From Acidobacteriota bacterium (GTDB taxonomy: Bacteria; Acidobacteriota; Terriglobia; Terriglobales; Acidobacteriaceae), in NCBI GenBank assembly GCA_021780075.1, contig JAJXZL010000003.1, positions 1-64,000 on the forward strand: 64,000 bases of DNA. The letters are read 5' to 3'. The translations under genes and the position numbers were made by a program. Position 1 is the first letter of the stretch. Every line of letters starts with the position of its first letter. The notes below the pieces were generated by a model. The model searched no databases and was not told the DNA's origin. It saw nothing but the letters and a program-made list of their open reading frames with translations. This document shows, in pieces, positions 11,217 through 11,333 of this stretch.

Positions 11217-11256
11217 TGTCCCAAGATTCTGACAATTGAGTCAAAGCGTTTTGACA
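11217..11256 (+). promoter_or_regulatory. Tandem activator-site candidate (two TGTC-N10-GACA-like palindromes)
   Basis: TGTCCCAAGATTCTGACA (11217-11234) and AGTCAAAGCGTTTTGACA (11239-11256), starts 22 bp apart. Confidence 0.6.
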
Positions 11257-11317
11257 TATTCGCAGAGTCTCATAAATCTTGCTATTTGATTTCAATGTCT
11301 TAGGTGGTGGAAATTGG

Positions 11318-11333
11318 TGGCAACCTGATTGCT
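11318..11333 (+). promoter_or_regulatory. Sigma-54 (-24/-12) promoter candidate
   Basis: TGGCAACCTGATTGCT matches TGGC-N8-TTGCW with correct GG-N10-GC spacing; lies 51 nt upstream of the ATG at 11384. Confidence 0.65.

What the first reader, a model, noticed from the sequence alone, without database searches (positions are those of the whole stretch)
11217..11333. Second copy of the same operator/promoter architecture upstream of a small secreted protein
Seen: TGTCCCAAGATTCTGACA (11217-11234) and AGTCAAAGCGTTTTGACA (11239-11256) lie 62 bp upstream of a second -24/-12 element, TGGCAACCTGATTGCT (11318-11333), which precedes the ATG at 11384. The reverse complement of the first palindrome (TGTCAGAATCTTGGGACA) matches the rbr site TGTCAGAATATTCGGACA at 16 of 18 positions. 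I found no other TGTC-N10-GACA pair in the intergenic regions I scanned. Inference: two promoters 5 kb apart form a regulon of the NtrC-type regulator encoded between them.
Basis: partly seen in the sequence, partly recalled or inferred. Interest (0 to 1): 0.83.

Follow-up and report, generated by a model that had tools for sequence, protein, structure and literature searches.

The report
Enhancer pair of a sigma-54 regulon
The two short DNA palindromes are real and are one of at least five copies, in this acidobacterial genome, of a switch by which a neighbouring two-component regulator probably turns on stress and cell-surface genes: a new example of a well-known kind of gene control.

Summary
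Confirmed and extended. The dyads at 11217-11234 and 11239-11256 and the -24/-12 box at 11318-11333 are as described. Single dyads in the window do not exceed chance; the case rests on pairing, sigma-54 boxes and conservation.

Orthologs of the secreted-protein gene in other species and genera keep the same dyad pair and -24/-12 box. A profile trained on relatives only ranks the window's two pairs first and second in the whole genome. Three further pairs precede large TIG-domain proteins, each with a -24/-12 box. Among 200 genomes, all 15 with strong hits carry the ortholog of the regulator at 12239-13630. Of 36 enhancers 35 have a sigma-54 box, mostly at about 60 or 71 bp, one helical turn apart. 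No other HTH_8 protein found in the genome has this recognition helix.

Best reading: a membrane kinase activates this NtrC-type regulator, which binds as tandem dimers and drives sigma-54 transcription of exported stress and surface proteins and of its own operon. Relatives add Usp, Crp/FNR and P-type ATPase genes. The signal is unknown (redox or low oxygen inferred); binding is untested. New member of a known kind.

The parts
11217..11234 (+). distal dyad of the enhancer of the secreted-protein promoter, TGTCCCAAGATTCTGACA
   Evidence: conserved in orthologs; profile hit
11239..11256 (+). proximal dyad, AGTCAAAGCGTTTTGACA, 22-bp register to the distal one
11318..11333 (+). sigma-54 -24/-12 element TGGCAACCTGATTGCT, 61 bp after the proximal dyad
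   Evidence: same position upstream of orthologs
11384..11947 (+). SEC: 187-aa protein with N-terminal signal-like helix, predicted four-helix bundle, no Pfam or NCBIfam family
12239..13630 (-). NtrC-type response regulator (receiver, AAA+ with GSFTGA, Fis-type HTH with SRSDLGYK helix), proposed binder of the dyads
13653..14990 (-). membrane histidine kinase (HisKA, HATPase_c; hydrophobic N-terminal half)
14993..15553 (-). DUF2231 predicted membrane protein
15621..16253 (-). rubrerythrin with signal-like N-terminus; ATG at 16253 is the likely start (the listed GTG at 16304 lies only 3 bp after the -12 element)
16308..16323 (-). sigma-54 -24/-12 element of rbr, TGGCTGGCCATTTGCA, 72 bp from the proximal dyad
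16396..16413 (-). proximal dyad of the rbr enhancer, TGTCGCAAAATTTTGACA
16417..16434 (-). distal dyad of the rbr enhancer, TGTCCGAATATTCTGACA

Best explanation
11217-11256 is the upstream activating sequence (enhancer) of a sigma-54 promoter at 11318-11333. The response regulator encoded at 12239-13630, activated by the adjacent membrane histidine kinase, binds the two dyads as tandem dimers on one face of the helix, contacts sigma-54 RNA polymerase by looping, and opens the promoter with its AAA+ (GSFTGA) ATPase, so that the exported four-helix protein is made. The same regulator acts on the rbr promoter, whose gene run rbr-DUF2231-kinase-regulator would give positive autoregulation, and on three distant promoters of TIG-domain exported proteins. 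Shown by sequence and comparison: the elements, their conservation, genome-wide rarity, co-occurrence with the regulator, and helical spacing. Inferred: phosphorylation, binding, looping, autoregulation, and a redox or low-oxygen signal.
For: Same dyad pair and box upstream of orthologs in other species and genera. Profile trained on relatives only: window pairs are the genome's two best sites; the other strong hits precede TIG-domain proteins with boxes at 75 and 76 bp, and a weaker third one has a box at 109 bp. All 15 of 200 genomes with hits of E up to 0.01 carry the regulator ortholog, 6 of 6 outside the training set (hypergeometric p 3.7e-6), and 23 of 31 hits lie within 15 kb of it. In independent genomes the hits precede rbr, SEC, kinase, DUF2231, receiver and Cys-rich genes. 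35 of 36 enhancers have a sigma-54 box; 41 of 72 sides have one at 55-78 bp against 2.5% background; spacing peaks at about 60 and 71 bp with none at 63-67. The SRSDLGYK recognition helix occurs in this regulator alone among the HTH_8 proteins of the genome and SRSD[LMF]GYK in every strong-hit genome read. rpoN is present.
Against: No binding or expression data. Some genomes with SRSDxGYK regulators (G076, G121, G164) give no profile hit, so the site model is incomplete. Strict-filter scans of 200 genomes may miss sites. Co-occurrence and spacing p values ignore shared ancestry; G130 is close to training genome G179. The oxygen/redox signal is indirect.
Confidence: 0.88

Rival explanations
1. 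The dyads are enhancers of a sigma-54 regulon, but of a different regulator in the genome; the neighbouring regulator has other targets.
For: The genome has several other sigma-54 activators with GxFTGA motifs.
Against: Sites co-occur with this regulator's ortholog and cluster near its gene; its recognition helix is unique in the genome and tracks the sites across species.
Confidence: 0.07
2. The dyads bind a repressor or a sigma-70-type activator and the -24/-12 boxes are coincidental.
For: Inverted repeats of this size also suit many dimeric repressors; no transcription start is mapped.
Against: Boxes accompany 35 of 36 enhancers at helically spaced distances against a 12.7% background per side within 30-160 bp; dyads lie well upstream of the core promoter, where a repressor would be unusual.
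Confidence: 0.04
3. Chance resemblance of AT-rich intergenic sequence.
For: At up to one mismatch the window has no excess of single dyads (18 against 20.1 expected).
Against: No pairs in 1.8 Mb of background; conservation across genera and into a second family.
Confidence: 0.01

Closest known systems
GlrR (QseF) of Enterobacteriaceae with its upstream activating sequences at glmY
   Same: Same half sites: consensus TGTC-N10-GACA (PMC8745638), also written TGTN12ACA (PMC6075780); sigma-54 promoter; two-component partner; recognition helices share R-[ST]-[DE] (NRTEF and SRSDL).
   Different: E. coli glmY has three dyads 33 and 63 bp apart, ending 89 bp before the -24 box, assisted by IHF; here two dyads in 21-23 bp register about 60 or 71 bp from the box. 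The regulator is 37% identical to GlrR and far below the GlrR model cut-off (309 against 763 bits). Targets differ.
NtrC/ZraR/AtoC-type two-component sigma-54 activators
   Same: Receiver, AAA+ and Fis-type HTH order; kinase next to it; tandem enhancer dyads upstream of -24/-12 promoters.
   Different: No NCBIfam equivalog cut-off is met, so it is an unnamed member of this kind.
DosR and FixLJ-FixK type low-oxygen regulons (from general knowledge)
   Same: The target classes Usp, Crp/FNR and P-type ATPase recur together in relatives.
   Different: Those use LuxR-type or Crp-type regulators; here sigma-54 and an NtrC-type regulator. The signal is not established.

Membership tests
NtrC-family sigma-54 response regulator | receiver, sigma-54-interacting AAA+ with GxFTGA, Fis-type HTH | tested here: met
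   PF00072, PF00158, PF02954; GSFTGA
NtrC-family sigma-54 response regulator | cognate histidine kinase and RpoN in the genome | tested here: met
   HisKA/HATPase_c kinase next to it; Sigma54_DBD at G000:C49
NtrC-family sigma-54 response regulator | binds the enhancer and activates the promoter by ATP hydrolysis | not testable with these tools
   needs footprinting and in vitro transcription
sigma-54 promoter | -24 GG and -12 GC at the fixed distance with an upstream enhancer | tested here: met
   TGGCAACCTGATTGCT 11318-11333 and TGGCTGGCCATTTGCA 16323-16308; 35 of 36 enhancers
GlrR/QseF | NCBIfam NF011695 equivalog cut-off | tested here: not met
   308.8 bits against 763; the match stops at residue 372, before the HTH
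GlrR/QseF | TGTC-N10-GACA upstream activating sites | tested here: met
   similar half sites, different arrangement
GlrR/QseF | glmY-qseE-qseG-qseF gene order | tested here: not met
   the regulator lies behind rbr, DUF2231 and the kinase; a glmY-like RNA was not searched for
NtrC, AtoC, ZraR equivalogs | NCBIfam cut-off of TIGR01818, NF008469, NF007689 | tested here: not met
   403 of 559, 400 of 714 and 324 of 760 bits
DosR/FixLJ-type low-oxygen regulon | induction by low oxygen | not testable with these tools
   only indirect: usp and rbr of Acidobacterium capsulatum rise at low oxygen (PMC11636273)

The most novel reading that the evidence does not exclude
A lineage-specific sigma-54 system of Acidobacteria does the work that DosR or FixLJ-FixK do elsewhere: a membrane kinase senses falling oxygen or redox state, and one compact tandem enhancer, often serving two divergent promoters, switches on Usp, Crp/FNR, P-type ATPase, exported rubrerythrin and surface proteins.
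Probability: 0.35. Interest if true: 0.65.

Novelty: new member of a known kind. Interest (0 to 1): 0.5.

Why it matters
It gives a testable regulon with a defined DNA motif to a bacterial lineage for which the literature searches here found no described sigma-54 enhancer regulon. It ties an unnamed exported four-helix protein family, exported rubrerythrin and TIG-domain surface proteins to one signal, and suggests that an R-[ST]-[DE] recognition helix reads TGTC/GACA in two distant regulators.

Tried and rejected
The first footprint scan ignored that minus-strand loci are not turned; repeated correctly. A first alignment misplaced one 23-bp pair; that row was dropped. A sigma-54 box from the 11217 pair towards the P-type ATPase was looked for and not found (best score 10.5 at 229 bp). 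Fold search of the exported protein gave no significant relative, nor did the PDB sequence search. Literature searches for an Acidobacteria sigma-54 or rubrerythrin regulon found none. One Pfam call failed on wrong coordinates and was redone.

Full report
Observation. The dyads are in 22-bp register and the gap to the box is 61 bp. At the rbr gene the mirror arrangement stands on the minus strand: dyads 16434-16417 and 16413-16396 (21-bp register), 72 bp gap, box TGGCTGGCCATTTGCA at 16323-16308, ATG at 16253. Read towards their promoters, the distal dyads resemble each other closely (16 of 18). Single dyads are not in excess in the window, so the case has to rest on pairing, box and conservation.

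Conservation. The exported 187-aa protein has homologs in 42 of 200 genomes of the order. Upstream of the orthologs in G099, G107, G077 and G135 the pair sits at about -167 to -143 and the box at -65 or -66 from the start codon, as in the window; more distant ones (G179, G130, G132, G138, G184, G185) keep all or part of it with other distances to the start. Homologs in G162, G191, G028, G084 and G064 show no comparable pair with a box; four of these genomes lack a close regulator ortholog and G191 has one of only 56% identity.

Regulator. The gene order rbr-kinase-regulator, near the SEC gene, recurs in G099, G077, G107, G135 and G179. A 40-position profile trained on 21 pairs from relatives, none from this genome, ranks the window's two pairs first and second in the whole genome; next come C13:16109, C31:33797 and, weakly, C33:31636. 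Over 200 genomes, hits with E up to 0.01 occur in 15, all with the regulator, including six not used for training (p 3.7e-6). The recognition helix reads SRSD[LMF]GYK in every strong-hit genome for which it could be read; orthologs without sites mostly read SRSALAYK, SRSDLSYK or SKSDLSYK, but a few (G076, G095, G121, G164) keep SRSDxGYK without a strong hit. No other HTH_8 protein found in this genome has that helix.

Promoters. Of 36 enhancers in genomes with the regulator, 35 have a sigma-54 box within 30-160 bp, 11 of them on both sides, that is, possible divergent promoters sharing one enhancer. Distances fall mostly at 57-62 and 68-76 with none at 63-67, about one helical turn apart. That is what looping between a regulator and polymerase on fixed helix faces predicts. 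The statistics are not corrected for shared ancestry.

Targets. In this genome: SEC, rbr with the gene run behind it, and three large TIG-domain proteins with lipoprotein- or signal-like starts; G099 has counterparts (C79, C121). In relatives: P-type ATPase behind a Cys-rich small gene, Usp proteins, Crp/FNR regulators, a receiver-only protein, DUF2231. Independent genomes repeat the list, and the hits examined in genomes without the regulator have no sigma-54 box at the expected distance. Usp and rbr genes of another acidobacterium, Acidobacterium capsulatum, rise at low oxygen (PMC11636273), which makes an oxygen or redox signal plausible but does not show it for this system.

Place among known systems. 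The half sites equal those of GlrR/QseF (PMC8745638; PMC6075780), checked here on the E. coli glmY promoter, but the regulator fails the GlrR model and the site arrangement differs. It works like GlrR and is not a member of that family. It is a new member of the NtrC kind.

Noticed in passing
window 8984-10894 (-): A PIB-type P-type ATPase gene stands divergent to the SEC gene. In G179 its ortholog lies behind a Cys-rich small gene under the same enhancer type, but here no sigma-54 box faces it.
   Followed up: partly
L094 4214-4253, L104, L096, L181: One dyad pair often has -24/-12 boxes on both sides (11 of 36), suggesting divergent sigma-54 promoters that share an enhancer.
   Followed up: yes
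L095 (complement of 2356), L094, L096, L097: A conserved Cys-rich protein of about 107-156 aa without a Pfam family is a recurrent target of the divergent promoters.
   Followed up: partly
L121 (G000:C28:3608-4189): A second rubrerythrin-like frame in this genome contains an in-frame TGA; no enhancer was found in that locus.
   Followed up: no
L151, L152, L153: Three large TIG-domain proteins share a similar C-terminal region (RDGLRSDLLVVTSSM-like); an unnamed exported family of Acidobacteria.
   Followed up: partly
L196 (G042:C4:381706-381751): Two near-identical palindromes GTCAAATATATTTGAC in a genome without the regulator and without a sigma-54 box: probably the sites of another regulator.
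   Followed up: no
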